Shown here: piece after piece, positions 11,388 through 36,894 of the stretch
Position numbering within the stretch: position 1 is the stretch's first letter
Layout of the letters: every line of letters begins with the position of its first letter
Assembly: GCA_944327295.1 (NCBI GenBank)
Contig: CALVHF010000003.1
Location: 1 to 64,000 of the forward strand
Origin: an uncultured Desulfovibrio sp.
GTDB lineage: Bacteria > Desulfobacterota > Desulfovibrionia > Desulfovibrionales > Desulfovibrionaceae
Length of the DNA: 64,000 bases
Direction of reading: 5' to 3'
Program-made: the position numbers and the translations under genes
Notes under the pieces: generated by a model
Seen by the model: only the letters and a program-made list of their open reading frames with translations
What the model was told of the DNA's origin: nothing
The model's database searches: none

Positions 11388-11788
11388 CGCAAAACCGTCA
11401 CAAAGGTCTGGCTGGGGGCTACGCAGGTGGAGGGGCCGTTGGGAGTCATGCCGAGAGCATTGCAGCCGCCGGTGCTTGTCAGGCGCATGACGGGGCTTCC
11501 GTGCACAATGACGGCCGTGCTGCCCGCAATCCACATGTTGGCGCCCTTGATGAGATGGGAGACCAGGCCTGTGGCTGTGCCCGCCTCGTCACCGGAAGAC
11601 ATGGCAAGACTGGCCATCTGGTTGACTGTGGGGGTGCCGCCCATGAGAATGGTGGCGGCCGCAGACGGGCACATGGCTGAGGTGGCAATGTTGGGATAGG
11701 GCGTGGGCACAGGTCCGGCCGGAGTGGGCGTCAGACAGGTGTCCGGCATTCCCATGGTCTGGCCTGAGCCGACAGTCAGTGCAAACAT
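11384..11788 (-). CDS. PAAR-like protein (DUF4150), T6SS spike tip
   Basis: 134 aa. DUF4150 proteins are PAAR-like tips that sharpen the VgrG spike of T6SS. Diagnostic segments are TCLTPTPAGPVPTPYPNIAT near residue 17, followed by ATILMGGTPTVNQMA and GTATGLVSHLIKGANMW. There is no C-terminal toxin extension, so it is a bare tip. The start MFALTVGSG follows GGGGAGGAAG; longer in-frame starts lack this. Downstream it overlaps the exported protein gene by four bases. Confidence 0.88.
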   Translation of the reverse strand: MFALTVGSGQTMGMPDTCLTPTPAGPVPTPYPNIATSAMCPSAAATILMGGTPTVNQMASLAMSSGDEAGTATGLVSHLIKGANMWIAGSTAVIVHGSPVMRLTSTGGCNALGMTPNGPSTCVAPSQTFVTVLR

Positions 11789-11916
11789 GGACGTCTTCCT
11801 CCCCTGCAGACAAGTTCTTCTGCAGACAGATGTTTCGGACAAAGATTTTCGGGACATCTTTTTTGCGGCACACTCCCGTGGCCCTGGGAAAGCTGCGCAA
11901 GAAAGAACCCGGCTCA

Positions 11917-12636
11917 TCAGGAAATGTGCACCTGGGGCGCATCAATCTTGACCACATCCCTGGCCAGCTGGGTCACAGTGCCGGCCTGGGTGAGACTGCT
12001 CTCCTCGACACAGACACGGACATTGTGTGCCTGGGTTTCATCATCCCCGCTCACCATGCGCTGAGCACTGCCAAAACGGCCCATGAGCCTGGCAAAGGTC
12101 TGCTCCAGACGCTCGCCAAAGGAGCGTAGCACCCTGGTGACCAGGGTGGCCTCGGCAACGGTGGCCTCGGCACTGGCGGCCTGAACCTGCAAGGCGCCAG
12201 TGGCAAGACTTGTGTCTGCTGCTGTGATCTCAAGGGTCTGGCTGCTCTGCAGACGAACCGGAGCAGGACTTGCGACGCGCACGCCGTGGGGGAAGTCAAG
12301 CTGTGCTTCCGTGGCCTTTCTGGTCAGGATGGCCAGGACAAAGGCCCTGCCATCGTCCAGGGGAGCAAAGAGCACTTCGTCTCCGAGCTCGGGAACAAGG
12401 AGGCAGGAGGCGGCCACGGAAGCCTTCCAGGTGCAATCGCTGCTCTGGATGCGTACCGCACGTTCGCACCCTTCTGCGTGTTCGTCCCAGGCGTCCAGCA
12501 CTAGGCCTGTGAGCAGGCCAGAGACTGCGCCGCCAGGCTGGAGGAGGGGGGAAGCGAGGCCGGAGGCCTGAACTGAAGCGACAGAGGGCGCGGAAAGATC
12601 GGCCTTGTTGTCAAGAGTGAGGGCCTGGGTCTGCAT
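11917..12636 (-). CDS. DUF3540 domain protein, T6SS-associated
   Basis: 239 aa. Matches the DUF3540 family, which occurs in T6SS loci with DUF2169 and DUF4150 genes. The first part has VRIQSSDCTWKASVAASCLL then GDEVLFAPLDDGRAFVLAIL, a beta-rich OB-like region. The C-terminal part has a long Ala/Glu-rich helix and ends DVVKIDAPQVHIS, a beta-helix-like end. Probably a spike or adaptor part. Start ATG ending at 12636 follows GAGG. There is a 128-base gap to the PAAR-like gene. Confidence 0.82.
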   Translation of the reverse strand: MQTQALTLDNKADLSAPSVASVQASGLASPLLQPGGAVSGLLTGLVLDAWDEHAEGCERAVRIQSSDCTWKASVAASCLLVPELGDEVLFAPLDDGRAFVLAILTRKATEAQLDFPHGVRVASPAPVRLQSSQTLEITAADTSLATGALQVQAASAEATVAEATLVTRVLRSFGERLEQTFARLMGRFGSAQRMVSGDDETQAHNVRVCVEESSLTQAGTVTQLARDVVKIDAPQVHIS

Positions 12637-12748: not shown

Positions 12749-13843
12749 CTAGAGGTCCCTGTCTGGATGTACCCTGTGCTGCAGGAGCCAGTCTTCGCTG
12801 CGTGCCCGCTGAGGGTCCGTGCCCCGGCTGCCTGCAAGGAGAGCCCTGTCCATGAAGGCCTCTTCCCTGCGGACGCGGTGCAGATTAGCACTGGAGAAGT
12901 CCGCATTGGCAAAGAAGCCGTGGCTCAGGTCCGCATGGGAGAGATCGGCCCTGAAGAAGCGTGCCCCCTGCGCCTGGCAGTGCCTGAAGGAAGCGCCTTC
13001 GCACAGGGCATCGGAAAAATCGGCAAAGCTCAGGTCCGCCTGTTCGAGATGCGCCTGCAGGAACATGCCGCAGGCAAAGCGGCCATGGCACAGGCGGGCA
13101 CCGGCAAGCCTGGCCTCGCGAAAGAGGCACTGCTCGCTGCGGGTTTCGGAAAAGTCGCAGCCCGTGAGGTCGCACTTGAGGAAACCGACGCCCGTGAGAT
13201 GCGTTTTCTGGAAGTTGCAGCCCTTGAGGGAGGCGAAGCTGAACTGGACATAGGAGAGGTCCATGCCCGAGAAATCGTGCCCGTCCAGCCGGGCCGAGAG
13301 CAGGGCCGTCCTGTTGAGCCGTGCCCCCTTGAGCACAACGCCTGCAAAATCGCAGTCCACAAAGACCGCATGGCTCAGGTCGCACTGGTCAAAATTGGCA
13401 CCTGCCTGGCATTTGACAAAACTGGAGCGCAGGCAGTCGGCGCCTGCCAGGCACGCTCCTTCAAGCGTGCAGTCCTGCACGGTGCAGTAGTGCAGCCGCG
13501 AGCCGGAAAGGTCTGCGCCTGCAAGGTCGCAGTCCTGAAAGGCCACCCGCTCGAAGTGGCAGTTGTGCAAGAGCGCCCCCTTGAGCTGCATGTTCTGCAG
13601 GGCTGCGCCTTCCAGACGGATGTCGGAGAAGTCTGCGCCTGCAAGGTCGCACTCGCGAAAGGCCGTGCGCTCGATGCGGGCACCCCTGAGGCTGGCATGG
13701 CGCAGGCTTACCCGTTCAAACCAGCCTCCGGACAGGTCTGCCCCGGAGAGATCGATTCCGTTCAGGGTGAGATCTTCCAGAAACTCCCGGTTGGCAATGG
13801 CTGCGAGAACGTCCTCGCGTGTCTGCGGGATGTGGCTGCTCAT
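12749..13843 (-). CDS. Pentapeptide repeat protein, T6SS-associated
   Basis: 364 aa built almost throughout of A(D/N)LXX-type pentapeptides (for example GIDLSGADLSGG, DLAGADFSDIRLEGAALQN), which fold as a square right-handed beta-helix. No signal peptide, enzyme motif or membrane helix. Its start overlaps the stop of the DUF2169-pentapeptide gene by four bases and its repeats resemble that protein's tail. The two may act together as an adaptor or cargo scaffold under the VgrG/PAAR tip. Confidence 0.85.
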   Translation of the reverse strand: MSSHIPQTREDVLAAIANREFLEDLTLNGIDLSGADLSGGWFERVSLRHASLRGARIERTAFRECDLAGADFSDIRLEGAALQNMQLKGALLHNCHFERVAFQDCDLAGADLSGSRLHYCTVQDCTLEGACLAGADCLRSSFVKCQAGANFDQCDLSHAVFVDCDFAGVVLKGARLNRTALLSARLDGHDFSGMDLSYVQFSFASLKGCNFQKTHLTGVGFLKCDLTGCDFSETRSEQCLFREARLAGARLCHGRFACGMFLQAHLEQADLSFADFSDALCEGASFRHCQAQGARFFRADLSHADLSHGFFANADFSSANLHRVRREEAFMDRALLAGSRGTDPQRARSEDWLLQHRVHPDRDL

Positions 13844-16800
13844 TTGCTCATCTCCATGCGCCGCAAAAGGTCTTCCTGCCCCTCGAGAAGACTGCGTTCC
13901 AGATTGCTGCCCGCAAGGGCCGTCTTGCCGAGGACAGCCTTGTAGACTTCGGCGCCATAGAGATTGCAGTCCTCAAGGCTTGCCTCCACGAGGCGCGAGC
14001 GCCTGAGGGATCCGGTGGCCAGAGAGGAACCATGCAGATCCGCGCCTTCGAGATCGCAGTGGCGCAGCTGTGCCCCGTCTGCCTGGCAGTGAACAATGAG
14101 AGCCCGTGGCAGATCGCAGCGATCGAGGCAGGCATTGCTGAGGCGGCAGTCCTGGAAGACGGCTCCCGGCAGCCGCACTTCCCTGGCACAGAGATCGTCC
14201 AGCACGCAGTGCATACACCGGAGTCGTTCTATCTCGCAGTTCACGAGAAAACGCAGGTTTGTGGCTTCGCAGTCCACAAGGGCAAGTTCGGAGCCTGTGC
14301 AGGTCACAAAGCCCGTTTCCTGCCAGTGACCGCCCTCCACACGGACCCCTTTGAGAGCGCAGCTGGCAAGGGTGCATTTGTTCAGAGAACACTGCTGCAG
14401 GGTCAAGCCCTTCAGGGGGCATTGGGTGAAGGTGCAGAGTTCCATGTGCACCTCCCTGACCGTGCCCTGCCAGTCTGTATTTGTAAAGCCACAGAGCTTG
14501 CAGGAGGCCCGGGTCAGGTCGACATCCTGGATGGAACTCTCCTTCCACTGCGCAAGTTCCATCTGCAGGCCCTCGCCTCGTGTTCCGACAAGGCTTGCCC
14601 CGGTGAAGGAGCACATGCTGAGGGAGGCATGACTCAAGTTGGCTCCGTCCAGGCAGATTTTGGTCGCCATGGCCTTGTCCCAGACCGTGCGGCTCAAATT
14701 GGCGCCGGCAAGGTTCACCTCTTCCAGAAAGCAGTCTCTGAAGATGCAGCCGGACAGATCCTGGCCCGAAAAATCCACCTTGCGCAGGGTCAGTCCCCTC
14801 ACGCCGTTTTTGAGCTGGCCTATGAGATCCGGCACATCGGACACCCTTGGCGGCTTGAGGCTCGGGCCTCCGCCAGGAAGGGTCTTGACCCAGTCAGGCA
14901 GGGGATCCGGCAAAAGGGGCCCTGAGCCAGCCCTGGCAAAGAGGGCGCGATCGGCCAGAATCCGCTCCCTGGACAGGGCATCAAGGGCCTCAATCTTGTC
15001 CACGGCCTTGAGATAGCGCTGCCTCAAGGCCTGGATCCTGGGTACATCGCCGGGCTTTTTTCCCTGCAGCAGCCGTTCTGTCTTGTCCAGGTTCTTCATG
15101 ACATCCGGATCCGGAAGCTGGGGTAGCTTCATGGCCAGAACCTCATCCAGGGTGGCGGAAGGAGAAGGCGGCAGGACAAGATCTCCGAAGGGTTTTTTGA
15201 GGGTGGAGAGTTCCTTCTGCACACTGGCTCTGGCCTTGTCAGCGGCGGTCGTGAACTCGGCTCTCTTTCCGTCTGCGATGGCTTTGGCCCGCTGCTTCAG
15301 ACGGGCCACAATGCCTGCCACATCCACTTCTGGCACAGCGACCGGATTTTTGTTGTCCGAGGGCCCGGGAACAGTCTGATCCGGCAGGGGCACCCCTCTC
15401 TGGCGCAGTTCCCGAACAAGCCAGGAGCGGACATCAAGGCCCTGTTCCCGGGCGTGCCACAGTGTGGGCACGGCCTGGTCTGCAGGCCAGGGCAGGGGCT
15501 CGCAGGGCTTGCCGCAGAGCGGCTGCCAGACGGCGGCCAGCACTGCCTTTCGCTGCGCCTGCTTTGCGGCCGAAAAGGTGTGCGACACGGGTGCAAGCCC
15601 CGCGGGACACAGTGTTTCGGGCAGAGGAGGAACAGGCCAGAAGATCTGTTCGGCTCGGGCAAGGACGCCCCTGTCCTCGTCGGCCACTTCGCCTGCCTGG
15701 GGAGACTGGGCAATGGCCAGGGCGCAGAGATCGCCTGCCAGGGCATAGCAGAGCCAGGCTTCCAGGGGCGAGGTGCACAGGAGCACGGGCTTGGGACGGA
15801 TGGCACCAAGAAGCTGCAGGCCGTGCCTGGAGCCCGGCATGGTCCACAAGGTGTCCGGGGCAGCGGCGGCAGTCAGGTCCATGAACAGGTCTGCAGGCAG
15901 AGCCTGCAGATCGCTCTGAGCCGCTTGTCCGGTCCGGTCCGGATCATTCGTCCTGGCGCAGCCTGCGGGGAGGACGTACAGGGCAATGCATCGGGCCCCG
16001 GCAAAGAAGGGAAGGACAAGACCTCTGGGCATGGCAAGCGTGCCCTTTTGGGCGAGTTCGTCTCCAAAGGGGACAAGCCTTTCGTCCTGCAGGTCCAATC
16101 CGAATTCTTCGGGATGGATGGGGCAGTCTTCGGAGAGATAGGCCAGACGCGCATTGAGCACATCCCCCTCGCGCAGGCCGGCTGCAAGCAGGGCCTGCAC
16201 AAGCTGCATGGCAGCAGGGTCCGTACTCTCAAGGAGGGCATGATCGGCAAGCAGCTGCAGGGCTCTGGTACTCCAGCGCTCCTCCGGGGAAGGCTCGGGC
16301 ATGTCCAGGTTCAGGGGGTGCTTTGCTGCCTCCTCGCGCATCTCCCTGGTCGGCAGATGGCCCCAGTCCTCCCTGGCCTTCTCGAGCATCTTTTGGGTCT
16401 TTTTCTGGGCAGCGGCAACAATTTTGTCGAGGCGCCCCATGTTGCGGGCGGCCTTGTCCAGTTCGGGCAGAAGGCTGGTCAGCCGTGCCTTCAAAGGCTC
16501 CAGGGAGCGGGTGTCGATTTTCACCCTGTGTCCAAACTCCCTGTGCATGGCAATGAGGCGCTGCTCGGCCTCGTCAATGATTGCCAGGGCCCTGTTCAGG
16601 CGCTCCTTTGCCCTGGCAAACTGCTGCACGCCCTGGACAGGAAGCACAGCAGCCCTGCCTGTGGCCTGATCCAGGGCCAGGTTGAGATCCTCTTCCAGGG
16701 TCCGCAGGCTGGCCCGGCTCTTTTCCAGAACTTCGCCGGCAGAGAAGGGCTGAGGTTCCTGCACCCTTGCCTCGGAAAGGCGCCTTGTCTGCTCGGCCTG

Positions 16801-17883
16801 CCAGAACCGTATGTCCGTGCGGGGTGCGCGGGCGTCCTCCACCACGGCAAAGAGGCGCACAACGTCGCTGAACTCGTCGTCCTGAACGGGGAGAACGGCA
16901 CGCCACAGGCCCACGCCGCGCTCAATGGCCGGAAAGAGCCACACGGTCTCGAAGCGGCAGGTGTACTCCTCGAACAATTCCTGTCTGGGAGCGGTGTCAC
17001 TGCGGCCATAGGTCTTGGGATCCCTTATTCTGCTCGCAAAGACGCGCACGCGTTTGGAGGGCAGGCGGGACGTGATGAAGGGCTTGTCGGGATGCAGGTG
17101 CTCAAGGGTGATCGGCTCTCCGCCAAGGAAGTAGCCTGGAACGGCACCGGACTCCGCGGCCGTGCTGCTGCCATAGTCCTCTGGCAGGCGCTGTTCTTCC
17201 TGGGCCAGGGAGAAGTAGGCAGGATTGAGATCCGGGGGAAAGCCCGGCCAGAAATTCTTGAGCCAGCGTTCGTCATAGGTGCCTGCCAGGGCAAGGCGTT
17301 CGGGAGCGTCGGCCGGAACGGGCAGGGGGCAGGCAGGCCTTGGCCTGTCCGCAGGACTGGTAACCAGGCCAAGGCGGGGATCCTCCACCTGGGGCAGGGC
17401 CTGACGCAGCTCGCCCCAGGGAGTGCGCAGGGCCTCCAGGCCCGCTCCCTGGGGATTGGCGGCATAAGAGCTGCCACCAAAGGCTGTCTGCCAGGTCAGG
17501 GGCACGCTGAGCACGGGCTCGGGCCGTGAGGGCGCAGCCCCAGCAGGACCAGCTTGCCAGAAGCGCGGCCCGAAGACGGCCAGCGTGCGTTCTATGGGAC
17601 CGACGGCAAAGCGCACGGCACCGCCAGGTGCAGGGCTTTTGTTCGGGGCATGCCAGGAGCCTGCCAGCAGGACTTCGCCGCGCACCTTGGGAAAGCCCGG
17701 ATCCAGAAGGCCTTGTTCGCCCAGCAGAGGCAGGCATTCGGGCCAGAGCTTCTGCTCGGACAGGGGCGTCGCGGGATCGTCCAGGGCAAAGTACTGGAGG
17801 ATTGCCACCTGCAGATACCAGTGCGGGCCCAGGGCAAAGGGAGAAAAAAGCAGACCTGTGGTACTGTCCTTGAGTATGTGCAT
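13840..17883 (-). CDS. DUF2169 protein fused to a coiled coil and pentapeptide repeats, T6SS adaptor
   Basis: 1347 aa, far longer than a stand-alone DUF2169 protein. Order: an N-terminal DUF2169 domain (about residues 1-330; LFSPFALGPHWYLQVA, VRGEVLLAGSWHAP, PLTWQTAFGGSSYAANPQGAG), a charged coiled-coil stretch (about 390-540), a less recognisable middle, and a pentapeptide beta-helix from about residue 1060 to the end (DLSGCIFRDCFLEEVNLAGA). DUF2169 proteins are known T6SS adaptors that load cargo on VgrG-PAAR tips. It probably acts in the cytoplasm as loader or scaffold. The ribosome site is weak. No toxin active site is visible. Confidence 0.85.
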   Translation of the reverse strand: MHILKDSTTGLLFSPFALGPHWYLQVAILQYFALDDPATPLSEQKLWPECLPLLGEQGLLDPGFPKVRGEVLLAGSWHAPNKSPAPGGAVRFAVGPIERTLAVFGPRFWQAGPAGAAPSRPEPVLSVPLTWQTAFGGSSYAANPQGAGLEALRTPWGELRQALPQVEDPRLGLVTSPADRPRPACPLPVPADAPERLALAGTYDERWLKNFWPGFPPDLNPAYFSLAQEEQRLPEDYGSSTAAESGAVPGYFLGGEPITLEHLHPDKPFITSRLPSKRVRVFASRIRDPKTYGRSDTAPRQELFEEYTCRFETVWLFPAIERGVGLWRAVLPVQDDEFSDVVRLFAVVEDARAPRTDIRFWQAEQTRRLSEARVQEPQPFSAGEVLEKSRASLRTLEEDLNLALDQATGRAAVLPVQGVQQFARAKERLNRALAIIDEAEQRLIAMHREFGHRVKIDTRSLEPLKARLTSLLPELDKAARNMGRLDKIVAAAQKKTQKMLEKAREDWGHLPTREMREEAAKHPLNLDMPEPSPEERWSTRALQLLADHALLESTDPAAMQLVQALLAAGLREGDVLNARLAYLSEDCPIHPEEFGLDLQDERLVPFGDELAQKGTLAMPRGLVLPFFAGARCIALYVLPAGCARTNDPDRTGQAAQSDLQALPADLFMDLTAAAAPDTLWTMPGSRHGLQLLGAIRPKPVLLCTSPLEAWLCYALAGDLCALAIAQSPQAGEVADEDRGVLARAEQIFWPVPPLPETLCPAGLAPVSHTFSAAKQAQRKAVLAAVWQPLCGKPCEPLPWPADQAVPTLWHAREQGLDVRSWLVRELRQRGVPLPDQTVPGPSDNKNPVAVPEVDVAGIVARLKQRAKAIADGKRAEFTTAADKARASVQKELSTLKKPFGDLVLPPSPSATLDEVLAMKLPQLPDPDVMKNLDKTERLLQGKKPGDVPRIQALRQRYLKAVDKIEALDALSRERILADRALFARAGSGPLLPDPLPDWVKTLPGGGPSLKPPRVSDVPDLIGQLKNGVRGLTLRKVDFSGQDLSGCIFRDCFLEEVNLAGANLSRTVWDKAMATKICLDGANLSHASLSMCSFTGASLVGTRGEGLQMELAQWKESSIQDVDLTRASCKLCGFTNTDWQGTVREVHMELCTFTQCPLKGLTLQQCSLNKCTLASCALKGVRVEGGHWQETGFVTCTGSELALVDCEATNLRFLVNCEIERLRCMHCVLDDLCAREVRLPGAVFQDCRLSNACLDRCDLPRALIVHCQADGAQLRHCDLEGADLHGSSLATGSLRRSRLVEASLEDCNLYGAEVYKAVLGKTALAGSNLERSLLEGQEDLLRRMEMSK

Positions 17884-17922: not shown

Positions 17923-18552
17923 TTAGCCGATGAGGGTCGTCGCGTTCTGCTGAAGAATGGTAGCGGCTGTCGTGCAGACACTGGTGCAGAGCCTGGTGGA
18001 GTTCGTGGCATTGATCTCGCATTGCTGGGCAGCCTCGGTCAGATTGGTAATGATCTGGTTGTACGTGGCGGCCTTGCGGGAAAAGTCATTGACCAGGGTT
18101 GTTGCCTGTTCGATGGTCTGCGTCAGAGCCGCTTCCGTCTCTGTCGTCTCTTCGACAACGGCACTATGAAGAGAGTTGAACTCATCCATGGCAGCGGCAA
18201 CCTCCGTCTTTTTGAGACCTGTTGCAAGCCTGCTTGCCACACTCGCGTGTCTGCTGGCGATCGTATTGAGTTCACTCTGTTTTGCCTTCAGGTCGTTGAG
18301 CTTCTGGCGAGCATTCACCGTCGACGTCTCTGCAGCGGGAGCTGCGTTGCTCTTGGTCTTGCTGCGTTCAACCTGGAAAAACCAGCCATCGTCAGCGACA
18401 ATCTTGGACAGGGCTGAAGTGTGCATCGATTTGACGCCGCCGCAAAAATCGAACTTGACGCCGCCGACCTGGGACAACGAAAGAGAAAAGCACAGTTCCA
18501 GGGAAGTGACTGAAACCAACCATGTCTCAATGCTGTTCAATGTAATGCTCAT
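17923..18552 (-). CDS. Thr-rich coiled-coil protein A, unknown, in T6SS spike region
   Basis: 209 aa. Not a family I recognise. Residues 1-65 are hydrophobic with beta character (SVTSLELCFSLSLSQVGGVK). From about residue 80 it is a long helix rich in Thr, Ala and Asn (TEAALTQTIEQATTLVNDFS, TAATILQQNATTL). No signal peptide is convincing. It is the third of three consecutive genes with the same layout and a GC content visibly below the flanking T6SS genes (about 53-57 percent in sampled stretches). Possible cargo, spike part or tip chaperone. Confidence 0.7.
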   Translation of the reverse strand: MSITLNSIETWLVSVTSLELCFSLSLSQVGGVKFDFCGGVKSMHTSALSKIVADDGWFFQVERSKTKSNAAPAAETSTVNARQKLNDLKAKQSELNTIASRHASVASRLATGLKKTEVAAAMDEFNSLHSAVVEETTETEAALTQTIEQATTLVNDFSRKAATYNQIITNLTEAAQQCEINATNSTRLCTSVCTTAATILQQNATTLIG

Positions 18553-18584
18553 GAGAAATCCTGCAAAAAGGAGTGATACACGTG

Positions 18585-19256
18585 TTACTTGCTGATGACA
18601 CTTCCCGATTCGATGCTGGTCCCTGCAGTCTGCTGTACAGAAGTGGCAAGAGTCGTCATCCTCTGGGCATTGAGCGAGAGCGTTGCATAACTTTGCCGCA
18701 GTTGAACGGCTACTTCGTTCATTTGGGTGACAAGTCGGTTGCCTGTCACTGTCGTCCGGGTCAGCTTGTTATGCGTGCTGGTCACGTTTGCCAGCGTCTC
18801 GGAGACATGTGCCGCATACGTATCCACCTTTGCGTGAATCTCGTTCCGCTGCTGAACGAGATCCGATTTTCTGGCGAACGTCCGGCTTTCCTGCTGCGTG
18901 GCAGTGGTCTCCTGCGCTATGGCTGTTGACTGCTGTGCCAGGACATTGATTTGATTCAGGCACTTCTTGGTGTGGAAATCGATGGTCTCCATCTTTTTAA
19001 AGGTCGTATTGGTACACAGAGCCTTGCTGAAGACAAGATGCGCAGAGGAGCGCAGAGCAATCTTGTTGAGAAGCGTCAGATGCACACTGTATAAGCCCGC
19101 AAACCAGACAGTCTTGGCTCCGAGAACAAAGGTGTCGCTCATTCCCAGGGCAACCGAGTTTGCCATGGAGCAGGTGAGCTTCAGTGTGCCGTTTTCATTG
19201 CTGATGGAGATGCCGATTTTTCCGGACGGCTTGTCTGCGAGATTGGTTGTTTTCAA
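18585..19256 (-). CDS. Thr-rich coiled-coil protein B, unknown; start uncertain, beside an 11-G tract
   Basis: About 223 aa from a TTG at 19256 with AGGA eight bases before it. Layout as protein A: a beta-like hydrophobic N-terminal region (VWFAGLYSVHLTLLNKIALR), then a long Thr/Gln-rich helix (QQSTAIAQETTATQQESRTF, TSVQQTAGTSIESG). The same frame stays open to an ATG at 19349, adding a Cys/Pro-rich leader that crosses the 11-G tract. If that ATG is used, one base more or less in the tract would shut the gene off. The TTG start is favoured because its product matches proteins A and C in layout. Confidence 0.62.
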   Translation of the reverse strand: MKTTNLADKPSGKIGISISNENGTLKLTCSMANSVALGMSDTFVLGAKTVWFAGLYSVHLTLLNKIALRSSAHLVFSKALCTNTTFKKMETIDFHTKKCLNQINVLAQQSTAIAQETTATQQESRTFARKSDLVQQRNEIHAKVDTYAAHVSETLANVTSTHNKLTRTTVTGNRLVTQMNEVAVQLRQSYATLSLNAQRMTTLATSVQQTAGTSIESGSVISK

Positions 19257-19303
19257 AAGGAGAGTCCTTGCACAAGGCTGCTGGCAAAAATGTGCATCTT
19301 CCA

Positions 19304-19314
19304 GGGGGGGGGGG
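19304..19314. repeat. 11-G homopolymer tract upstream of coiled-coil gene B
   Basis: Eleven consecutive G on the plus strand (C11 on the coding strand) lie 48 bases before the TTG start of gene B and inside its frame if translation begins at the upstream ATG (19349). Tracts of this length are prone to slipped-strand mispairing. The assembled length may be inexact. Confidence 0.85.
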
Positions 19315-19357
19315 CAGCATGCAGCTCTCGGGCAGCACGCTTCAGGCAAAAGGAACG

Positions 19358-19470
19358 CTAGTATTTTGTTTTTGAAGTTCGTTAATAAGTCTGAATTGGG
19401 AAAAATCCATTTTCCACCATATTGTAGGAATTTCTTTACCTATTAACGAACTTAGAGAACGCTATACTAG
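19358..19470. repeat. Nested inverted repeat around a 53-bp AT-rich segment
   Basis: Inner arms AAGTTCGTTAATA (19375-19387) and TATTAACGAACTT (19441-19453) are exact 13-bp complements, 53 bases apart. Outer arms CTAGTAT (19358-19364) and ATACTAG (19464-19470) add 7 bp. The right outer arm covers the stop codon of coiled-coil gene C. The enclosed segment contains a TACAAT -10-like box on the minus strand reading towards gene B. It could be a long hairpin terminator between C and B, an operator, or an invertible promoter. No invertase gene is in the window. Confidence 0.65.
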
Positions 19471-20312
19471 GAATAGGTTATGCTTGGCGCTGTCTTTGTC
19501 GAGGTTGGGGCTGTTTCCTGAATAAGCGAATAGTTTTCCTGAACGGTTGTGAAGGTCTGGGTGCAGTTGGTCAGAAGGTCGTTGGCAGTGGTCTGCGCCG
19601 TCTCCATTCGGGTGGCTGTGAGCGTCAGAGCTGCTGTTGTCTGGGAGAGCGTCTGTTCAAGCTCGGTTTTCCGCTCGGTCACATCCTGTCTGATGGTCGC
19701 GAGGACAGTTTGCTCGGTACTCACCCGTGACTTGAAGCTCGCAAGATGGCTTCCCGTTGCGATCTCTTCGAGGTCCTGTTCCAGGGTGTCAAGCTGTGCG
19801 CTCACGGCAGCTGTCTCGTTTGCAATGGTGTCCATCCGGGCCGTGATGGTATTTAGATCGGATACGCTCAGTTTGGTCTCGATATTGACGGCTCTTGTTG
19901 TGCCCGAAGACTGGATGATATTGAGCACATTGGCGTCGACATCACTCATGAGACCAAGATCTACGGTGGTGCGGGATCCAAGAACAGAGTCGACGCGTCC
20001 GCCAAAGGTCGTATTGAAGCTGAACTGGGTAAAGCTGTTGGAGAACTGCAGGGTGAGGGAAACGATTTCATTGGCAAATACGGTCAGGGTGGGCGCATAC
20101 TTGAGAGTGATCGTGCTTTTGTCCTTCTCCACGTCCTTTTCGGCATCCGTTCCCGTGTCACTGCCCTGTTCGCCTGCCGGATCCTGCGGCTGGTCCTGTG
20201 ACTGATCCGAGGCCGGATCCTGCGGCTGGTCCGGCGACTGATCCGGGGTCGGATCCTGTGACTGGACCTGCGACTGATCCTGGGGGGTGGTCGTCTGGCT
20301 GTTCGTCTCCAT
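19467..20312 (-). CDS. Thr-rich coiled-coil protein C with Asp/Gln/Pro repeat N terminus, unknown
   Basis: 281 aa. Residues 1-50 hold three copies of a 12-residue Asp/Gln/Pro/Ser repeat (DQSQDQPQDPAG type). Next comes a beta-like hydrophobic region, FANEIVSLTLQFSNSFTQFS then FGGRVDSVLGSRTTVDLGLM. The rest is a long Thr/Glu-rich coiled coil (LDTLEQDLEEIATGS, TERKTELEQTLSQTTAALTL). Layout matches proteins A and B apart from the extra repeat domain. Start METNSQTTTP follows GGAG. Directly downstream of vgrG. Function unknown. Confidence 0.7.
   Translation of the reverse strand: METNSQTTTPQDQSQVQSQDPTPDQSPDQPQDPASDQSQDQPQDPAGEQGSDTGTDAEKDVEKDKSTITLKYAPTLTVFANEIVSLTLQFSNSFTQFSFNTTFGGRVDSVLGSRTTVDLGLMSDVDANVLNIIQSSGTTRAVNIETKLSVSDLNTITARMDTIANETAAVSAQLDTLEQDLEEIATGSHLASFKSRVSTEQTVLATIRQDVTERKTELEQTLSQTTAALTLTATRMETAQTTANDLLTNCTQTFTTVQENYSLIQETAPTSTKTAPSITYS
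20177..20284. repeat. Three tandem copies of a 36-bp minisatellite
   Basis: Units 20177-20212, 20213-20248 and 20249-20284 share the core GGATCCTG...GACTGATCC and encode the 12-residue repeats DQSPDQPQDPAS, DQSQDQPQDPAG and a diverged third copy. Each unit is 12 codons, so gain or loss keeps the frame. Confidence 0.85.
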
Positions 20313-20485: not shown

Positions 20486-22060
20486 TCAGTCATCGGACTG
20501 CATGCCGATCTTGATGTAGTTCTGACCGTCCGGGGAGGAGAGCAGGATGTGTTCCCTGCCAGGGGCATCCTCCATGAGGAATTTCTGGCCTGCGGCACTG
20601 TGCAGCTGTATCTGGGTGGCATTGGCATCCGTCACCTGGCTTGGGGTCTGGGGATTGAAGACGGCAGCCGTGATGACGGGCTCGTCGGGATTGCCGCCCA
20701 CAAAGCTCAGCATGACTTCCGTGCCCTTGTGCAGGGGCGCAAAGAAGCCCATGCCCTCGCCGGCATAGGGCTGCATCATGCGCACCCAGCAGGAGGCCTT
20801 GCCCCCGCCGCGCTGGGCCAGATCAAAGGGCAGGACGACCTTGTAGCGCCCTTCGGCATCCAGTTCGGCAAAGGCTCCTGTTCCCTGACCGTCAATGCGC
20901 GCCGGCAGGCTGCCGGCCACCCTGGGCCAGGGTGTGGTGCGCAGAGGGCGGTACTGCGTGGAGGCCTCGATGCAGGCAAAGGAGTTGCGGTAAAAGAGCC
21001 TGTCCTCGTCGTCCAGCCCCTGCAGGGCACTGCCAGCCCGCATGCTGCGGGCAATGAGCCTGGACTGGCTGCCCTCGTGCTCGACCCTGGTGGTCAGATA
21101 GCTCTGGTTGAAGGAAGAGCGGTAGTGATTGCGCAGGGTGAACAGGGCTCCTGGCCGCAGGGCCGGATTGTGGGAGAGGCCTTTGTATTCCAGGCTGTGG
21201 CAGAGCAGGCCTTCGGCCTCGATGCGGGCAAGATCCTCGCCCTGCTGCCGTGTCTCGTACTGGACGCCGTAGCGGTAGAAGCCCCCGTGTCCCGTCTCGC
21301 TGACCGGCACCTTGCAGGTCAGATCAAGGCTTGGCTTCTGGGGATTCCAGGTCCGAAACTCCACTTCCCTGGGCAGGGGTGTTGCACAGGCCGAAAAATG
21401 GGTGATGACCTGGCCCGGGTTTTCCGGGTTGAGGCCGGAGGGCTCGTGAAACTCGCAGGTCGCATTGCCGGGCAGGGGCTGATGCGCCATCTTGTTGTCC
21501 GCAAAGACGCAGCAGGGCCCGGCCGCCTTGTGCTCGAACCAGAAGCAGATGCCCAGGTACTCGAGCCAGCGGTTCACAAACTGGAAGTCCGTTTCGTCGT
21601 ACTGGCAGAAGAACGCCCTGCGTTCTGGATTTGTGCTCAGGCTGAACCTGAAGTCCGCCGACGAGAGGCCAGCCTCCTGCAGAACCTGCGTGCAGGCCTC
21701 CACAGGGGTCTTGTCCAGAAAGACGCGGTTGTGGCGCAGCAGGGTGAGCCACCAGAACTTGTGACGCAGGCAGGCCTTGTAGACAAAGCGCCTGTTCATG
21801 CGCTGCACGAGAGAGAAGGAAGCGAGCACGCCCGTGTAGTCCAGGCCGGATTCCGGGGCAAAAGGAGGCAGGAGACGCAGATGCGCTTCGCCCTGCAGGG
21901 CCTTGTGCAGATCGATGTCGGCCTCGTCCGAGACAAGGAGCACCTCGAACTCGTAGAGGGTGTTCAGGCCCTCGGATCCGCGAAAGCGCAGGACATCAAA
22001 GGTGTCGGCCGGAAAGCCGTCCAGGCTGAAGGTGAAGACAGGATTGGCAAGAGTGCTCAT
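20486..22060 (-). CDS. vgrG: T6SS spike protein VgrG (TssI)
   Basis: 524 aa. VgrG trimers form the gp27/gp5-like spike carried on the Hcp tube. The gp27-like half shows RFRGSEGLNTLYEFEVLL, DYTGVLASF, FFCQYDETDFQFVNRWLEYL and the gp5-type OB part shows ARIDGQGTGAFAELDAEGRY and HKGTEVMLSFVGGNPDEPVI. It ends soon after, with IQLHSAAGQKFLMEDA, so it carries no C-terminal effector domain. Cargo must therefore ride by adaptors, fitting the DUF2169 and DUF4150 genes next door. Confidence 0.95.
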   Translation of the reverse strand: MSTLANPVFTFSLDGFPADTFDVLRFRGSEGLNTLYEFEVLLVSDEADIDLHKALQGEAHLRLLPPFAPESGLDYTGVLASFSLVQRMNRRFVYKACLRHKFWWLTLLRHNRVFLDKTPVEACTQVLQEAGLSSADFRFSLSTNPERRAFFCQYDETDFQFVNRWLEYLGICFWFEHKAAGPCCVFADNKMAHQPLPGNATCEFHEPSGLNPENPGQVITHFSACATPLPREVEFRTWNPQKPSLDLTCKVPVSETGHGGFYRYGVQYETRQQGEDLARIEAEGLLCHSLEYKGLSHNPALRPGALFTLRNHYRSSFNQSYLTTRVEHEGSQSRLIARSMRAGSALQGLDDEDRLFYRNSFACIEASTQYRPLRTTPWPRVAGSLPARIDGQGTGAFAELDAEGRYKVVLPFDLAQRGGGKASCWVRMMQPYAGEGMGFFAPLHKGTEVMLSFVGGNPDEPVITAAVFNPQTPSQVTDANATQIQLHSAAGQKFLMEDAPGREHILLSSPDGQNYIKIGMQSDD

Positions 22061-22390: not shown

Positions 22391-25300
22391 TCAGCGCAAA
22401 GGTGCAGAGGGCAGATTGGGCAGCTGTATGTCCGAGAGCCGTTCGTCCTCGCCGCCCAGAGAATCCATGCGCGTGGGACAGAAGGCCGCCTTCCCTGGCA
22501 GGCTCCGGCCCACGAAGCGCTGGGCCATGAGGGCATCGTCCGCACCCCGGAAGGTGTAGCGCACGCGGATCTCCTCCACATCCAGCTCCCTGAGCACAGC
22601 CTCCTGACCAGGGAAGTCCGCAGGAGTCAGGACGAGCTCCCCACCGGCAAAATCGTGCAAGAAGGTCTGGAAGGCCCAGTCTCCGTCCCAGGAGGTGGTC
22701 ACGGTCTGGGACTCGAAGGAAACGGAGAGGCTAACCCTGCCGCAGGTGGCCGGTTCCCAGGTAAAGTCCTTGCTGATGAGGTAGTTGTAGTTGTCCAGGG
22801 TCTGCATGTCTGGTCCGCACTCAAGGCGCAGGCGCACCCTGTGCGGCTTCTGGGCCATCTCGTTGACGTTGACGGGATGCGCCGTGATGCCGATGACATA
22901 CTTGTCCCTGGCCTTGTGGCCCGGATGCTTGCTCTGATCAAGGAAGTTCAGGAATTCCGGGGTCAGGGGATAGCCTATGCCAAGCCAGCGGGCCACCTGC
23001 CAGCCGCTCGTGCGCGCCTTCAGGAAGGGTGCGGCAGGACCGTGCACAAAGGTGTTCAGGGCACTCTGCTCGTCAAAGAGCTGCGTCCACAGGCTGTCCG
23101 GATCCTGCTCGTCGATCTGGCTGAGCACGGAGCCTTCCCAGAGGTTGTTGAGCTCGCAGGCCGAACGGTACACGGCAAAGATGGTCTGCCAGGCAAGGGG
23201 GCCCTTGACCAGGCGCCAGAACTGATCATGTTCGCTGCTGCGCATGTCCATCTGGGCCTGCAGCTGGGCCAGGTGGGCCAGGGCTGCACTGACCGGCGTC
23301 TTGGCCGCTTCCTGGCCACCGGCATAGCCCTGGGCAATGAGCTGCAGGGCCTCGGCATCCGTGCCCGTGACTTCACGAATTCTGGCCAGATCGGCCAGAT
23401 AGTCCTGCAGAAGCTTTGCCTCGTCATGGCGTTCCGAGTATTCCCGGGCACGCCTGGCGTCAAGGCTTGTGGTCAGCTGTTCGGTCTTCTGATGGAGGGT
23501 GCTTTGCAGGGTCTGCGGCTCGCTGGCCGTGGAAAGCTGCCTGAGGAGTTCGGCAAAGCGGCCGGGCAGGCGGTCGAGCTCGGTGGCGGCATTGAGGTGC
23601 TCAATGCGCCTGAAGGCCTCGTCCATGCTCTGGATGAAGGCAAAGTAGGGATTGTCCTGCCCCGCCATGGTGGGCGTGATCCGGCGCCAGGCCTGTTGAT
23701 CGTCATTGTAGTGCAGGGCCTGGGAGAAAGTGTCCGCAAGACGCCACCAGGCCGAATGGAAGTCCCTGGCATAGCGATCCAGGAAGGCCTGGGAGAGGGT
23801 CGCAAACCTGTTCTTGTCCTGAGAGGCATTCTCGAGGGCCTTCAGCAGGCCCTGCATGCGCTCGTAGCCTTCAATGGTATAGGCCGCAGGCACACAGGGA
23901 TCCTTTGGTCCCCTGGGCCAGAAGCTGGCCATGGTGACGGAGGCTATACTCGGCCTTGAGTTGAGCCACTGCACGACCCAGTCCAGATTGGTGCCCAGAA
24001 GATCTAGGTAGGCATCCACCCGCAGGCTCTGCTGGGCCATCTGGGTACGGCGCAGTTCCGGTTCCTCCCAGCTTGCGTAGGCGGCAAGGACATTGTTGAG
24101 CTGGGCACTGCCCGAGGGCACCACCTCTTGCAGATCCCTGGCAAAGGCGTCCAGGGCGTCCTTGGCCTGGGGCAGGGGTTTGCCCTCTTCAGCTGCCTGC
24201 AAAACCCTGTGGGTCCAGGCCTGATAGTCGCAGAAATAGATGAGGGCCATGCGGCGGCGGTTTTCGGGCAGCCTCTGCAGGGCCCGGGCCACCTGATCGG
24301 GATTGAGGACAAGGAGGCTTGAGCGCACCCAGGCCGTGAAGCGGGCACGCATCTCCTGCAGGGCCTGCCAGGACTGGTCGGCCCCGAGCAATAGCCAGGC
24401 ATGCCTGTGCAGATCCGCCTCGAAGATGCGGATACGGTCGGCCACATCGCTCAGCTGCTGCACCCGCCGGTTCATGTCGCCTGCAAGCGTGATGCGGGCG
24501 GGGATGTCGTTGCGGGCCGTCTCCACAATCTGCATGCGCAGGACAAAGCAGAGGGAGAAGTAGGCTCCGAGCAGCAAAAGGAAGGAGAGCCAGAGAATGT
24601 AGGGGGCCCGGCGGCGCAGGGTCTGGACCGAGAACAGGCTGTCGTTCTGCCTGCTCAAGGCGCGCTCCCTGGGCAGGATGGTCGTGAAGAAGTCCTCGAG
24701 AAAGAGGGAGGCGCTGGTGCCGGGCAGGTTCCAGCGGCACTGGGCAAAGGTGGGCATCTGTTCCAGCAGGGCCGTGTGCACGCTGCCTTCCTGGCGGCCG
24801 CTGCACAGGAAGAGGCCGCGTAGCATGGGCGTGTGCCCGTAGTGGCTGGGACCGAAGACGGCCCGCACAAAGGCGCGTATGCCAGGGAAGAGCTGCTCCA
24901 TTTCGGCAGGCAGGAGCACGGCCTGCGTCCCTGGCGGCAGATCCGTGTGACCTGCCTGCTCCCGTTCCCTGGCCGCAAGAAGCAGGCTCAGATCCTGCAA
25001 ACGGCCGCGCAGGTGCTGCAGGGCCGTTTCCAGAAAGGCCAGAGCATCGCCCGCCTTCTTCTCCCTGTTCAGCAGGCCCAGCACCTGGCGGCGCTCGTCG
25101 GGAGTGAGCAGGCTGGCCAGGGAGGTGAGCCCCAGCACCCGGTCCATCTTGGTGACCAGTACATAGACGGGAAAGGTGGCGCCAAGAGCCGCATGCATGC
25201 TGTTGATGCGCTTGCGCACGAGGCGTCCGTAGTCGGCCAGCGCCTCTGGGCTGCGGGTCTGCAGCTGCTCCACGGACAGGGTGAGGATGAGGCCGTTGAG

Positions 25301-25912
25301 GGGTTCCCTGCGTCTGTGCGCTGCCAGAAGCCGCAGGAACTCCTCCCATTCCCTGTTGTCTTCCTCCTCGTTCTGGGGCACGGCATAGCGGCCTGCCGTA
25401 TCGATGACCACGGCCTTTTCAAAGAACCACCAGTCGCAGTTGCGGGTATTGGTCACATGGGCCAGGGGACCGGCATCACTGGCCTGAGCCGAGAGCCTGG
25501 CATGGGAGACGGCCGTGGACTTGCCTGTGCCGGCTTCGCCGAAGATCATGAACCAAGGCAGGGCATAGAGGGCAGCGCTGCCCTGGTCGAGGCCGGAGTG
25601 GCGCAGCATGTGCACGCCCTTGCGCCAGCGATCGCGCAGCTCCGTCAGGCGAACCTCTTCTTCCTGGGGGCTCAGGAGCGGACGGTCGTGTTCCACCATC
25701 TGGCGCAGGAAGCGCTCCTCCCGGTGACGGTAGTAGAGCCTGCGTACAAGCAGGACGCCCAGAATCAGGGCCAGACAGCCCAGGGCAAGCGCGCCAATTT
25801 CCCACAGGCTCCAGTCAAGCCTTGTGTGCAGCAGATAGGCCCCGGCACCGAGGAGTCCCAGGAGCAGGAGGATGAGCAGAAGACGCAGGAAAAGGCCGAG
25901 CAGCTTGTTCAT
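22391..25912 (-). CDS. tssM: T6SS membrane-complex protein TssM (IcmF)
   Basis: 1173 aa, normal for TssM. With TssJ and TssL it forms the envelope channel. Two N-terminal membrane helices (about 5-27 and 36-57), a Walker A motif GEAGTGKS at 125-132 in the cytoplasmic NTPase-like domain, a third helix (LWLSFLLLLGAYFSLCFVL) near residue 430, then the long periplasmic part ending with the TssJ-binding beta domain. Has a Walker A motif, unlike some TssMs that lost it. Follows tssL by 117 bases. Confidence 0.95.
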   Translation of the reverse strand: MNKLLGLFLRLLLILLLLGLLGAGAYLLHTRLDWSLWEIGALALGCLALILGVLLVRRLYYRHREERFLRQMVEHDRPLLSPQEEEVRLTELRDRWRKGVHMLRHSGLDQGSAALYALPWFMIFGEAGTGKSTAVSHARLSAQASDAGPLAHVTNTRNCDWWFFEKAVVIDTAGRYAVPQNEEEDNREWEEFLRLLAAHRRREPLNGLILTLSVEQLQTRSPEALADYGRLVRKRINSMHAALGATFPVYVLVTKMDRVLGLTSLASLLTPDERRQVLGLLNREKKAGDALAFLETALQHLRGRLQDLSLLLAAREREQAGHTDLPPGTQAVLLPAEMEQLFPGIRAFVRAVFGPSHYGHTPMLRGLFLCSGRQEGSVHTALLEQMPTFAQCRWNLPGTSASLFLEDFFTTILPRERALSRQNDSLFSVQTLRRRAPYILWLSFLLLLGAYFSLCFVLRMQIVETARNDIPARITLAGDMNRRVQQLSDVADRIRIFEADLHRHAWLLLGADQSWQALQEMRARFTAWVRSSLLVLNPDQVARALQRLPENRRRMALIYFCDYQAWTHRVLQAAEEGKPLPQAKDALDAFARDLQEVVPSGSAQLNNVLAAYASWEEPELRRTQMAQQSLRVDAYLDLLGTNLDWVVQWLNSRPSIASVTMASFWPRGPKDPCVPAAYTIEGYERMQGLLKALENASQDKNRFATLSQAFLDRYARDFHSAWWRLADTFSQALHYNDDQQAWRRITPTMAGQDNPYFAFIQSMDEAFRRIEHLNAATELDRLPGRFAELLRQLSTASEPQTLQSTLHQKTEQLTTSLDARRAREYSERHDEAKLLQDYLADLARIREVTGTDAEALQLIAQGYAGGQEAAKTPVSAALAHLAQLQAQMDMRSSEHDQFWRLVKGPLAWQTIFAVYRSACELNNLWEGSVLSQIDEQDPDSLWTQLFDEQSALNTFVHGPAAPFLKARTSGWQVARWLGIGYPLTPEFLNFLDQSKHPGHKARDKYVIGITAHPVNVNEMAQKPHRVRLRLECGPDMQTLDNYNYLISKDFTWEPATCGRVSLSVSFESQTVTTSWDGDWAFQTFLHDFAGGELVLTPADFPGQEAVLRELDVEEIRVRYTFRGADDALMAQRFVGRSLPGKAAFCPTRMDSLGGEDERLSDIQLPNLPSAPLR

Positions 25913-26029
25913 AAAAGACCATAACAGACTGGAAAATCAGGAGAAATCTGAAAATTCGGGCGAGAGCCACTGGACTGGGAACAGGAATGGGGGAAGAGGC
26001 AGGGCCGCGGCAAGGGGCCCGGGCAGGGG

Positions 26030-27001
26030 TCAGAAGCTGCCCGCGCCGAACTCCTGTACCCACTCGGCCACAAAGAGAGAGATGGTGTGATTGTAGGTAT
26101 GGTAGAGAAACAGGGTGGCCAGGGCCGGGATGAGCACAAGGGGCGCCAGCAGGGTCAGATGCAGGCCGCGGTGCGGCCTGGCTGCTTCGGGCATGTAATA
26201 GGCCTCTGGCGTCAGCCTGCGCGCATTGTCTGACAGTTCGCTGAAGGCAATGCGCCCTCTTTGTGCCTTTTCCAGGCTTTCCAGGGCAATGGCCGCAAGC
26301 CTGCTGCGTGCAGCAGGATCATAGTACTGTCCGCAAAAGCCCATGCTCAAGGCTGCGCCGTACAGGGCCAGAGCCTCTTCCTGCCAGAGGAGCAGGGGGT
26401 GGGCTGTGTCTGCTTCTGTGTCAGCGACGTGTCTCGGTACGAGATCGAGGCTTGTGCCTGCAGGCAGGGAAACGGGCCTGGCAGGCCTCAGGGAGAGGAA
26501 GGGGCGGCGGGTCGTGTTCGCCAGCTCGTGTGTCCTGGCAGCGTCAGCAGGCCCAGCCGGGCTGGCAATGGGCTGCGTGAGCTCTATGGGCTCGTCGAGG
26601 AGCGTCTTTTCTGCTGTTTTGCCGGGAACTGCGGACGGCTGCTTGCCGGCACTTGTTCCGGTCAGGCGATCCATGGCATGGAGCAGCTCGGCACAGTGAT
26701 CAAAGAATTCCTTGCCCGCATTGACCGTACCGCACAGGGTGCGCTGCAGCGTTTCCCTGGCCCAGTGTCCGCGGTGGACCCAGGCGCTTGTGAGCAGGGC
26801 CTCGTCCGTAAAGGCACAGACGGCAAAGAGCGCCTGAGAGCGGGCCTCTTCGGGAAAGTCCGCGGCCTCTTGTTCCGCCTTGTGCACAAGGGTGATCACA
26901 TCCTTGCGGACGGTTTCGTAGTCCGTGCTCTGCAGGGCCTGCGTGTCGCGGAAGAGGGCTGCAAAGGCCAGAACCGGCAGGTAGGCATGAAAGAGTCCCA
27001 T
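26030..27001 (-). CDS. tssL: T6SS membrane-complex protein TssL (DotU/IcmH family)
   Basis: 323 aa. The DotU domain includes VRKDVITLVHKAEQEA, ALFAVCAFTDEALLTSAWVHRG-type residues and FFDHCAELLHAMDRL; a single C-terminal membrane helix is LLAPLVLIPALATLFLYH. No OmpA/peptidoglycan-binding extension follows. An Arg/Pro-rich linker separates the two halves of the DotU domain, somewhat longer than usual. Start overlaps the tssK stop by one base (TGATG). Confidence 0.9.
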   Translation of the reverse strand: MGLFHAYLPVLAFAALFRDTQALQSTDYETVRKDVITLVHKAEQEAADFPEEARSQALFAVCAFTDEALLTSAWVHRGHWARETLQRTLCGTVNAGKEFFDHCAELLHAMDRLTGTSAGKQPSAVPGKTAEKTLLDEPIELTQPIASPAGPADAARTHELANTTRRPFLSLRPARPVSLPAGTSLDLVPRHVADTEADTAHPLLLWQEEALALYGAALSMGFCGQYYDPAARSRLAAIALESLEKAQRGRIAFSELSDNARRLTPEAYYMPEAARPHRGLHLTLLAPLVLIPALATLFLYHTYNHTISLFVAEWVQEFGAGSF

Positions 27002-28380: not shown

Positions 28381-28395
28381 GACTTGGTTCTCCGC

Positions 28396-29001: not shown

Positions 29002-29011
29002 AAGAGTCCGG

Positions 29012-32544: not shown

Positions 32545-32681
32545 GCTTGCTCCTTAGAAATAGGCTGGAAGTGAGAACGCCGGTCTTTGGAAAAACGAAA
32601 GAAGGCTCAAGGAAAACGGAAAGGAACATAATGGGAAAGGAAAGCTCGGAAAGGGCCCCTGGCACAGGAGCGAGTCACAGG

Positions 32682-32703
32682 GGCGGCCTGCCTGCAGGCC
32701 GCC
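32682..32703 (-). other. Intra-operon hairpin between tssG and clpV
   Basis: A 10-bp perfect inverted repeat (GGCGGCCTGC / GCAGGCCGCC) with a 2-base centre inside the 188-base gap between the tssG stop and the clpV start. No T tract. May modulate transcript stability or read-through. Confidence 0.5.
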
Positions 32704-32732
32704 TCGGGAATCCGGGCAAGGGCTCGGGCGGA

Positions 32733-36119: not shown

Positions 36120-36187
36120 GGAAGCCCTCCTGGGAAGACAGGCCCTGACAAAGGGAACAGGAACTGCCAGACAGCGTACACGGGAAG

Positions 36188-36252
36188 GGCAGGTTCCTGC
36201 CATTGTGCCTCAAGGGGCCAGCGCTCCTGAGGCATGCCGGTCGGAACCTGCC
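36188..36252 (-). other. Two-tier stem-loop immediately downstream of hcp
   Basis: Outer 10-bp arms GGCAGGTTCC (36188-36197) and GGAACCTGCC (36243-36252) enclose 7-bp arms TGCCTCA (36206-36212) and TGAGGCA (36228-36234). It starts 22 bases past the hcp stop, before tssE. Without a T tract it is more likely an attenuator or 3' end protector than a full terminator. Confidence 0.65.
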
Positions 36253-36273
36253 TGATATCCGCGGAACGGGGAA

Positions 36274-36753: not shown

Positions 36754-36894
36754 ACTGTCTCCTTACAATTAAGATAGAGATACTAACGAGAGAGGGGGAA
36801 TGTGCCTGTCCCGGAACAACCGGGCAGGAGCGAGGTGAGTCTTGAGCGGGTGAGCCCTGGAGGACAGGTGCGCCTGTCTGGCAAACCCGGGACT

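What the first reader, a model, noticed from the sequence alone, without database searches (positions are those of the whole stretch)
17923..20312. Three tandem Thr-rich coiled-coil proteins of an unrecognised family in a T6SS spike module
Seen: three consecutive genes (209, about 223 and 281 aa) share one layout, a short beta-like hydrophobic N-terminal region followed by a long Thr/Gln/Ala-rich coiled coil. They differ in sequence, have a lower GC than the flanks, and lie between vgrG and a DUF2169-pentapeptide gene. Known: VgrG and DUF4150 here carry no toxin domain, so cargo must be separate and adaptors load it. Inference: they may be three diverged subunits of one complex, as cargo, a spike collar, or a helical pore-forming assembly. 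This is the best candidate for an undescribed system in the window.
Basis: partly seen in the sequence, partly recalled or inferred. Interest (0 to 1): 0.75.

Follow-up and report, generated by a model that had tools for sequence, protein, structure and literature searches.

The report
Split, triplicated VgrG spike tip
Three odd neighbouring genes in a gut Desulfovibrio are most likely the detached tip of its type VI secretion spike: a piece that in related bacteria is the tail of one protein (VgrG) is here made as three separate, diverged proteins, which hints that the spike tip is built from three different chains.

Summary
Three minus-strand genes (281, 223 and 209 aa) share a short beta N-terminus and a long helix, have lower GC than their flanks, and match no curated family. 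They are not an isolated family. An HMM trained only on the C-terminal tails of VgrG proteins from other DUF2169 loci recognises all three (E 2.6e-12, 1.1e-4, 1.8e-4; 0 of 300 local shuffles each), and profile-profile comparison gives E 5e-12 over 206 columns. Their N-termini carry the 8-residue glycine repeat of the gp5/VgrG beta-prism. The window's VgrG stops exactly where those VgrGs run on for about 230-330 aa. In 54 loci, 17 of 18 tail-less VgrGs have one to three free tail proteins, while none of 36 tailed VgrGs does. The module is a Class III Tvp spike system (PMC13373197). I conclude that the distal spike extension of VgrG was split off and triplicated. That the three co-assemble as a 1:1:1 heterotrimer is inferred (about 50%): relatives with one or two free copies exist, and no multimer could be modelled.

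The parts
20486..22060 (-). vgrG, 524 aa: gp27-like, OB and only the start of the beta-prism; ends ...ILLSSPDGQNYIKIGMQSDD, with no C-terminal extension
   Evidence: Pfam Phage_GPD 2.8e-62, Phage_base_V 1.7e-10; NCBIfam TIGR03361; tail length 0 against relatives
19467..20312 (-). W1 (P0003, 281 aa): detached VgrG tail with an extra 63-aa Asp/Gln/Pro-rich N-terminus
   Evidence: fused-tail HMM 17.7 bits, E 1.1e-4 at Z=1000, 0/300 shuffles; AF2 strands 5-63 then helices
20124..20312 (-). low-complexity, probably disordered N-terminal segment of W1 (residues 1-63)
   Evidence: sequence; similar acidic/Pro-rich leaders in one member of the L057, L059 and L060 triplets
18585..19256 (-). W2 (P0002, 223 aa, TTG start): detached VgrG tail
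   Evidence: fused-tail HMM 42.7 bits, E 2.6e-12 at Z=1000, 0/300 shuffles; AF2 strands 15-30 and a helix 85-222, pLDDT over 90 for most of it
17923..18552 (-). W3 (P0001, 209 aa): detached VgrG tail
   Evidence: fused-tail HMM 17.0 bits, E 1.8e-4 at Z=1000, 0/300 shuffles
13840..17883 (-). TvpAB-type protein: DUF2169 domain plus C-terminal pentapeptide repeats, 1347 aa
   Evidence: Pfam DUF2169 8.3e-63, Pentapeptide 1.5e-24
12749..13843 (-). TvpB-type pentapeptide-repeat protein, 364 aa
   Evidence: Pfam Pentapeptide 1.7e-50
11917..12636 (-). TvpC-type DUF3540 protein, 239 aa
   Evidence: Pfam DUF3540 1.3e-31
11384..11803 (-). PAAR-like (DUF4150/PIPY, Tox-PAAR-like) spike cap, 139 aa, no toxin domain
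   Evidence: Pfam PF13665 3.8e-28 over residues 16-116
22391..39108 (-). T6SS core genes: tssM, tssL, tssK, clpV, tssG, tssF (two frames), hcp, tssC, tssB
   Evidence: Pfam hits

Best explanation
The three proteins are the C-terminal extension (distal shaft and tip) of the VgrG spike, detached from VgrG and present as three diverged genes. The VgrG encoded next to them ends just after its OB fold and the first beta-prism strands. Each small protein starts with a few octapeptide beta-prism repeats and continues as a long, probably trimeric, alpha-helical coiled coil. Proposed working: three VgrG cores form the base; the three small proteins pack side by side, most economically one of each as a 1:1:1 heterotrimer, continue the prism below VgrG, and present the surface on which the DUF2169 chaperone (TvpAB), TvpB and TvpC assemble the DUF4150/PIPY cap; the whole spike is then fired. 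Shown here: homology to VgrG tails, the exact complementarity with a truncated VgrG, the octapeptide periodicity, the helix prediction, and triplets in other genomes. Inferred: that they sit on VgrG, that they are fired, and above all the heterotrimer (about 50%; the stated confidence is for the detached-tail reading).
For: (1) An HMM built only from VgrG-fused tails hits W2, W1 and W3 at E 2.6e-12, 1.1e-4 and 1.8e-4 (Z=1000), with 0/300 local-composition shuffles reaching each. (2) hhalign of free triplet members against fused tails: E 5.4e-12, probability 97.5, 206 columns. (3) Gly at lag 8 is enriched in fused tails (48 observed, 9.8 expected), triplets (20 vs 5.2) and the window's three (6 vs 0.6), each p about 0.0005, with little or no excess at other lags; glycines at positions 25, 33 and 41 are nearly invariant in the fused tails. 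(4) Window VgrG tail is 0 aa; fused relatives of this tail type run on for 230-331 aa. Across 54 DUF2169-linked loci: tail-less VgrG with free tail 17, tail-less without 1, tailed with free 0, tailed without 36. (5) Three-copy loci in ZJ369, L058 and two Adiutrix MAGs. Each Adiutrix copy has its own orthologue in the other MAG (42-51% identity, no length change in two of three; joined at 98-100% bootstrap). (6) Motif-to-C-terminus length is 193-203 aa in the window and 192-195 in L057. (7) AF2: the same order, strands then one long helix, for W2 and W1. (8) In the published Class III system the long VgrG1 prism tip is what TvpAB, TvpB and Paar1 are modelled to bind (PMC13373197).
Against: W1 and W3 match the fused-tail model only weakly on their own. 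Copy number is not fixed at three: many relatives have one free tail and some have two, so heterotrimerisation is not forced. The beta region is low-confidence in the AF2 monomers, and Foldseek found nothing significant. No multimer could be modelled. The phylogeny does not resolve whether the triplication was single or repeated. Several of the 17 free-tail loci were found by searching for free tails, and loci are not phylogenetically independent.
Confidence: 0.82

Rival explanations
1. Interchangeable homotrimeric tips: each of the three proteins forms its own homotrimer, and any one of them can cap the VgrG core, giving three spike versions from one VgrG. (This is a rival on stoichiometry only; it shares the detached-tail reading.)
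For: Single free tails exist in many relatives, where a homotrimer is the simple reading. T6SSs with several VgrGs are reported to make distinct spike versions (PMC4924876, title and abstract as listed).
Against: All three copies are kept and roughly length-matched in every triplet locus found; only one member of most triplets carries the long disordered leader; the within-locus copies are as diverged as 20-31% identity, more than swapping on one socket would need.
Confidence: 0.3
2. Cargo effectors: three secreted toxins or pore-formers loaded by the DUF2169 adaptor.
For: Gene position between vgrG and an adaptor gene; no other toxin domain in the module; the Class III VgrG1 of Serratia marcescens has an associated membrane-depolarising activity that its authors could not assign to a toxin domain (PMC13373197).
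Against: No toxin family hit; homologous to VgrG tails that are part of the spike itself; VgrG lacks its tail exactly when they are present.
Confidence: 0.1
3. Assembly placeholders: cytoplasmic, unsecreted mimics of the VgrG tip that pre-assemble the cap, as TvpC does.
For: Class III systems use a VgrG-like TvpC trimer in a pre-complex that VgrG later replaces (PMC13373197).
Against: A TvpC-type DUF3540 gene is already present; the three have no recognisable OB fold; the VgrG here has no tip of its own to replace them with.
Confidence: 0.1
4. Unrelated Thr-rich coiled-coil proteins whose similarity to VgrG tails is only compositional.
For: PDB profile searches return only generic coiled coils; W1 and W3 scores are low.
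Against: Local-composition shuffles never reach the scores; the glycine period of 8 lies in the non-helical part; position and VgrG truncation coincide in 17 loci.
Confidence: 0.04

Closest known systems
Class III Tvp spike-assembly system of Serratia marcescens Db10 (VgrG1-TvpAB-TvpB-TvpC-Paar1; PMC13373197), matching synteny type C of DUF2169 loci (PMC11883445)
   Same: Same gene set: DUF2169-pentapeptide, separate pentapeptide protein, DUF3540, DUF4150, linked vgrG.
   Different: There the long prism tip is part of VgrG1 (786 aa, 186 A prism). Here VgrG is 524 aa and the tip region is three separate genes.
C-terminal tails of VgrG in other Desulfovibrionales and Chromatiales (e.g. L066, L061, L063, L079, L124-L126, L130)
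   Same: Homologous octapeptide beta segment followed by a coiled coil; next to DUF2169.
   Different: One fused tail per VgrG polypeptide; some loci carry three or four complete tandem VgrGs (L061, L079).
Bacteriophage T4 gp5 C-terminal beta-helix (octapeptide repeat; own knowledge)
   Same: Eight-residue glycine repeat forming a trimeric prism.
   Different: A homotrimer, part of gp5; no long coiled coil, no separate genes.
Proposed VgrG heterotrimers of Vibrio cholerae and Chromobacterium violaceum (PMC9430734)
   Same: A spike from non-identical chains.
   Different: There whole VgrGs mix; here only the distal part would be heteromeric, on an apparently homotrimeric VgrG base.

Membership tests
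VgrG C-terminal extension (tail) family of DUF2169-linked VgrGs | Sequence homology to fused tails | tested here: met
VgrG C-terminal extension (tail) family of DUF2169-linked VgrGs | Glycine octapeptide repeat in the N-terminal part | tested here: met
   (degenerate in the window's three)
VgrG C-terminal extension (tail) family of DUF2169-linked VgrGs | Being part of the VgrG polypeptide | tested here: not met
   separate ORFs with their own starts; VgrG ends at residue 524
VgrG C-terminal extension (tail) family of DUF2169-linked VgrGs | Trimeric assembly on the spike axis | not testable with these tools
   only monomer prediction available
Class III Tvp system | DUF2169 protein with C-terminal pentapeptide repeats plus separate pentapeptide protein | tested here: met
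Class III Tvp system | DUF3540-type TvpC and DUF4150 cap | tested here: met
Class III Tvp system | VgrG with a long beta-prism, usually 700-800 aa (a tendency in the paper, not a strict criterion) | tested here: not met
   VgrG 524 aa; the extension is supplied in trans
Class III Tvp system | TvpC pre-complex replaced by VgrG | not testable with these tools
   biochemical property
TvpC (DUF3540/DUF6484) | OB fold plus prism | tested here: not met
   no DUF3540, DUF6484 or OB-domain hit in the three proteins
T6SS cargo effector | Recognisable toxin domain | tested here: not met
   absence from libraries only
T6SS cargo effector | Adjacent immunity gene | tested here: inconclusive
   a 275-aa ORF of unknown family lies after DUF4150; similarity to small proteins beside other VgrGs not found by BLASTP

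The most novel reading that the evidence does not exclude
An obligate heterotrimeric spike extension: one copy each of three diverged chains, in register, forms an asymmetric tip on a three-fold VgrG base, so that the tip presents three different faces to the cap, the chaperones or cargo. Splitting and multiplication of the tail (1, 2 or 3 copies) may have happened more than once.
Probability: 0.45. Interest if true: 0.72.

Novelty: new variant of a known kind. Interest (0 to 1): 0.52.

Why it matters
To my knowledge described VgrG spikes carry their shaft and tip in one polypeptide. A tip supplied in trans, by up to three diverged genes, gives a natural test of how a three-fold spike is matched to an asymmetric cap and chaperone set, which Class III Tvp work leaves open. 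It also gives an identity to a family of uncharacterised proteins next to vgrG, so that they are not mistaken for effectors, and it explains short VgrGs in DUF2169 loci.

Tried and rejected
Family searches (Pfam, NCBIfam, PHROGs) gave only chance coiled-coil hits below cut-offs. PDB sequence profiles gave generic coiled coils. Foldseek on the two AF2 models: nothing with E under 0.001. A tree of tails is dominated by long branches; one origin of all triplet rows is not rejected (p-AU 0.29) and neither is a window-only clade (0.40), so the history is unresolved. I first read the 500-690-aa ORFs between vgrG and DUF2169 in other loci as separate genes; they are in-frame VgrG tails and of another tail type not recognised by these HMMs. 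Homology of the 275-aa ORF to small proteins beside other VgrGs was suspected by eye and not supported. Literature: none of the searches I ran turned up a paper on a split VgrG tail; the library is open-access only.

Full report
WHAT IS THERE. On the minus strand, in the order of transcription, lie tssM, an 83-aa ORF, vgrG (22060-20486), three small genes W1 (20312-19467), W2 (19256-18585) and W3 (18552-17923), then a DUF2169-pentapeptide gene (17883-13840), a pentapeptide gene, a DUF3540 gene and a DUF4150 gene. W1-W3 have their own starts with plausible ribosome-binding sites. GC falls to 0.48-0.60 over them and GC3 is 0.64-0.68 against 0.73-0.81 in vgrG, DUF2169 and tssM. Thr is 13-18%. No curated family matches. 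The upstream T6SS core genes are present.

THE SAME PLACE IN OTHER GENOMES. DUF2169 loci of the same genus and of the 84,980-species genome collection were examined between vgrG and DUF2169. Two other Desulfovibrionaceae (L057 = Desulfovibrio sp. ZJ369; L058) have three diverged small proteins there. Two Candidatus Adiutrix MAGs (L059, L060) have three as well, two upstream and one downstream of vgrG. A near-identical triplet occurs in Candidatus Desulfovibrio intestinipullorum (L056). Others have two (L122, L163, L170) or one (L065, L069, L161, L162, L164, L166, L168, L169, L171).

WHAT THEY ARE. In further loci (L061, L063, L066, L079, L124-L126, L130) the same kind of sequence is the C-terminal tail of VgrG. 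An HMM built from these fused tails alone, which had seen no free protein, scores W2 at 42.7 bits (E 2.6e-12 at Z=1000), W1 at 17.7 (1.1e-4) and W3 at 17.0 (1.8e-4). None of 300 local-composition shuffles of each reached these scores. Single-copy L065 scores 64.4 bits; two Adiutrix members (L059_1, L060_1) are not recognised by this model. Profile-profile comparison of Desulfovibrio triplet members with fused tails gives E 5.4e-12, probability 97.5, over 206 columns. In 5,679 open frames of the loci then fetched, an HMM of the free proteins picked almost only free tails and VgrG tails.

COMPLEMENTARITY. The window's VgrG ends at ...YIKIGMQSDD, the point at which fused VgrGs of this tail type continue for 230-331 aa. 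Counting 54 loci whose VgrG end is seen: 17 have a short VgrG and one to three free tails, 36 have a long VgrG and no free tail, none has both, and one (L076) has a short VgrG with a 433-aa neighbour outside this family (Fisher p 3.8e-13). Loci are related and some were found through free tails, so the p-value is only indicative; the near-absence of exceptions is the point. Many of the 36 long VgrGs carry a different tail that these HMMs do not recognise.

FOLD. Glycines in the N-terminal part recur every 8 residues: 48 pairs against 9.8 expected in fused tails, 20 against 5.2 in triplets, 20 against 4.8 in one- or two-copy proteins, 6 against 0.6 in the window's own three. I read this as the gp5/VgrG beta-prism octapeptide (the link to gp5 is from own knowledge). 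The rest is helical: AF2 models W2 with strands 15-30 and a helix 85-222, and W1 (from residue 64) with strands up to 63 and helices 87-119 and 124-210. Hydrophobicity peaks at 3.48-3.60 residues. The prism part is low-confidence in a monomer, as expected for a trimeric fold, and Foldseek is uninformative. W3 was not modelled.

THE SYSTEM. DUF2169 proteins chaperone DUF4150/PIPY caps onto VgrG (PMC11883445). Systems with DUF2169-pentapeptide, a separate pentapeptide protein and DUF3540 are Class III Tvp systems. Their VgrGs tend to have long prisms, and in Serratia the tip is modelled to bind TvpAB, TvpB and the cap (PMC13373197). The window's module meets the gene-content definition but its VgrG is short; the extension is provided in trans.

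WHY THREE. The simplest reading of three diverged, length-matched copies for a three-fold spike is one of each. Motif-to-C-terminus distances are 203/193/194 (window), 192/193/195 (L057), 198/192/196 (both Adiutrix). Within-locus identity is only 20-31%, yet Adiutrix orthologues are kept one-to-one at 42-51%. Only one member of most triplets has the long acidic or Pro-rich leader. Against: one- and two-copy relatives show that three is not obligatory in general, L058 lengths differ more, and the tree cannot tell one triplication from several. I put the heterotrimer at about 50%, interchangeable homotrimeric tips at about 30%.

VERDICT. A real and well-supported feature: a split, triplicated VgrG tip within a known class of spike-assembly system. 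New variant of a known kind.

Noticed in passing
window 19358-19470, between W1 and W2: A MITE-like element of about 113 bp with 33-nt terminal inverted repeats (79% complementary); two further copies in the same genome (G000:C73:151-263, 96%; G000:C56:13891-14005, 82%). It is also present at this place in L056.
   Followed up: partly
window 33998-35706: tssF is split over two frames (247 aa and 363 aa, matching TssF profile positions 6-226 and 234-607), near a run of C in TTTCCCCCTCC. It may be a sequencing error or a real frameshift that would disable the T6SS.
   Followed up: partly
window 10000-26000 against L056: Mosaic identity: two blocks near 100% (22.75-26 kb and about 16.3-20.9 kb) within DNA of about 72-93% identity, as if the end of vgrG, W1-W3 and the start of the DUF2169 gene had been exchanged as a block between two related strains.
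   Followed up: partly
L167 (G027:C10:8000-21000), 6045-7366: Two free tail proteins (203 and 221 aa frames) side by side with no vgrG or DUF2169 gene detected within the 13 kb fetched: orphan tips.
   Followed up: no
L061, L073, L074, L079: Three or four complete tandem VgrGs, each with a C-terminal tail, beside one DUF2169 gene: possibly heterotrimeric whole spikes.
   Followed up: no
L166 6571-7194 (minus): A free tail gene in the opposite orientation between vgrG and the DUF2169 gene.
   Followed up: no
window 10707-11534 (minus): A 275-aa ORF of unknown family after the DUF4150 gene, with a hydrophobic stretch (MKACAVPLALALVLLLP) that could be a signal peptide of a shorter start; conserved in L041/L056 (84%) and L057 (44%). 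A possible periplasmic immunity protein.
   Followed up: partly
G000:C16 (L045): A second DUF2169 locus in the same genome with a VgrG carrying a 555-aa tail that these HMMs do not recognise.
   Followed up: no
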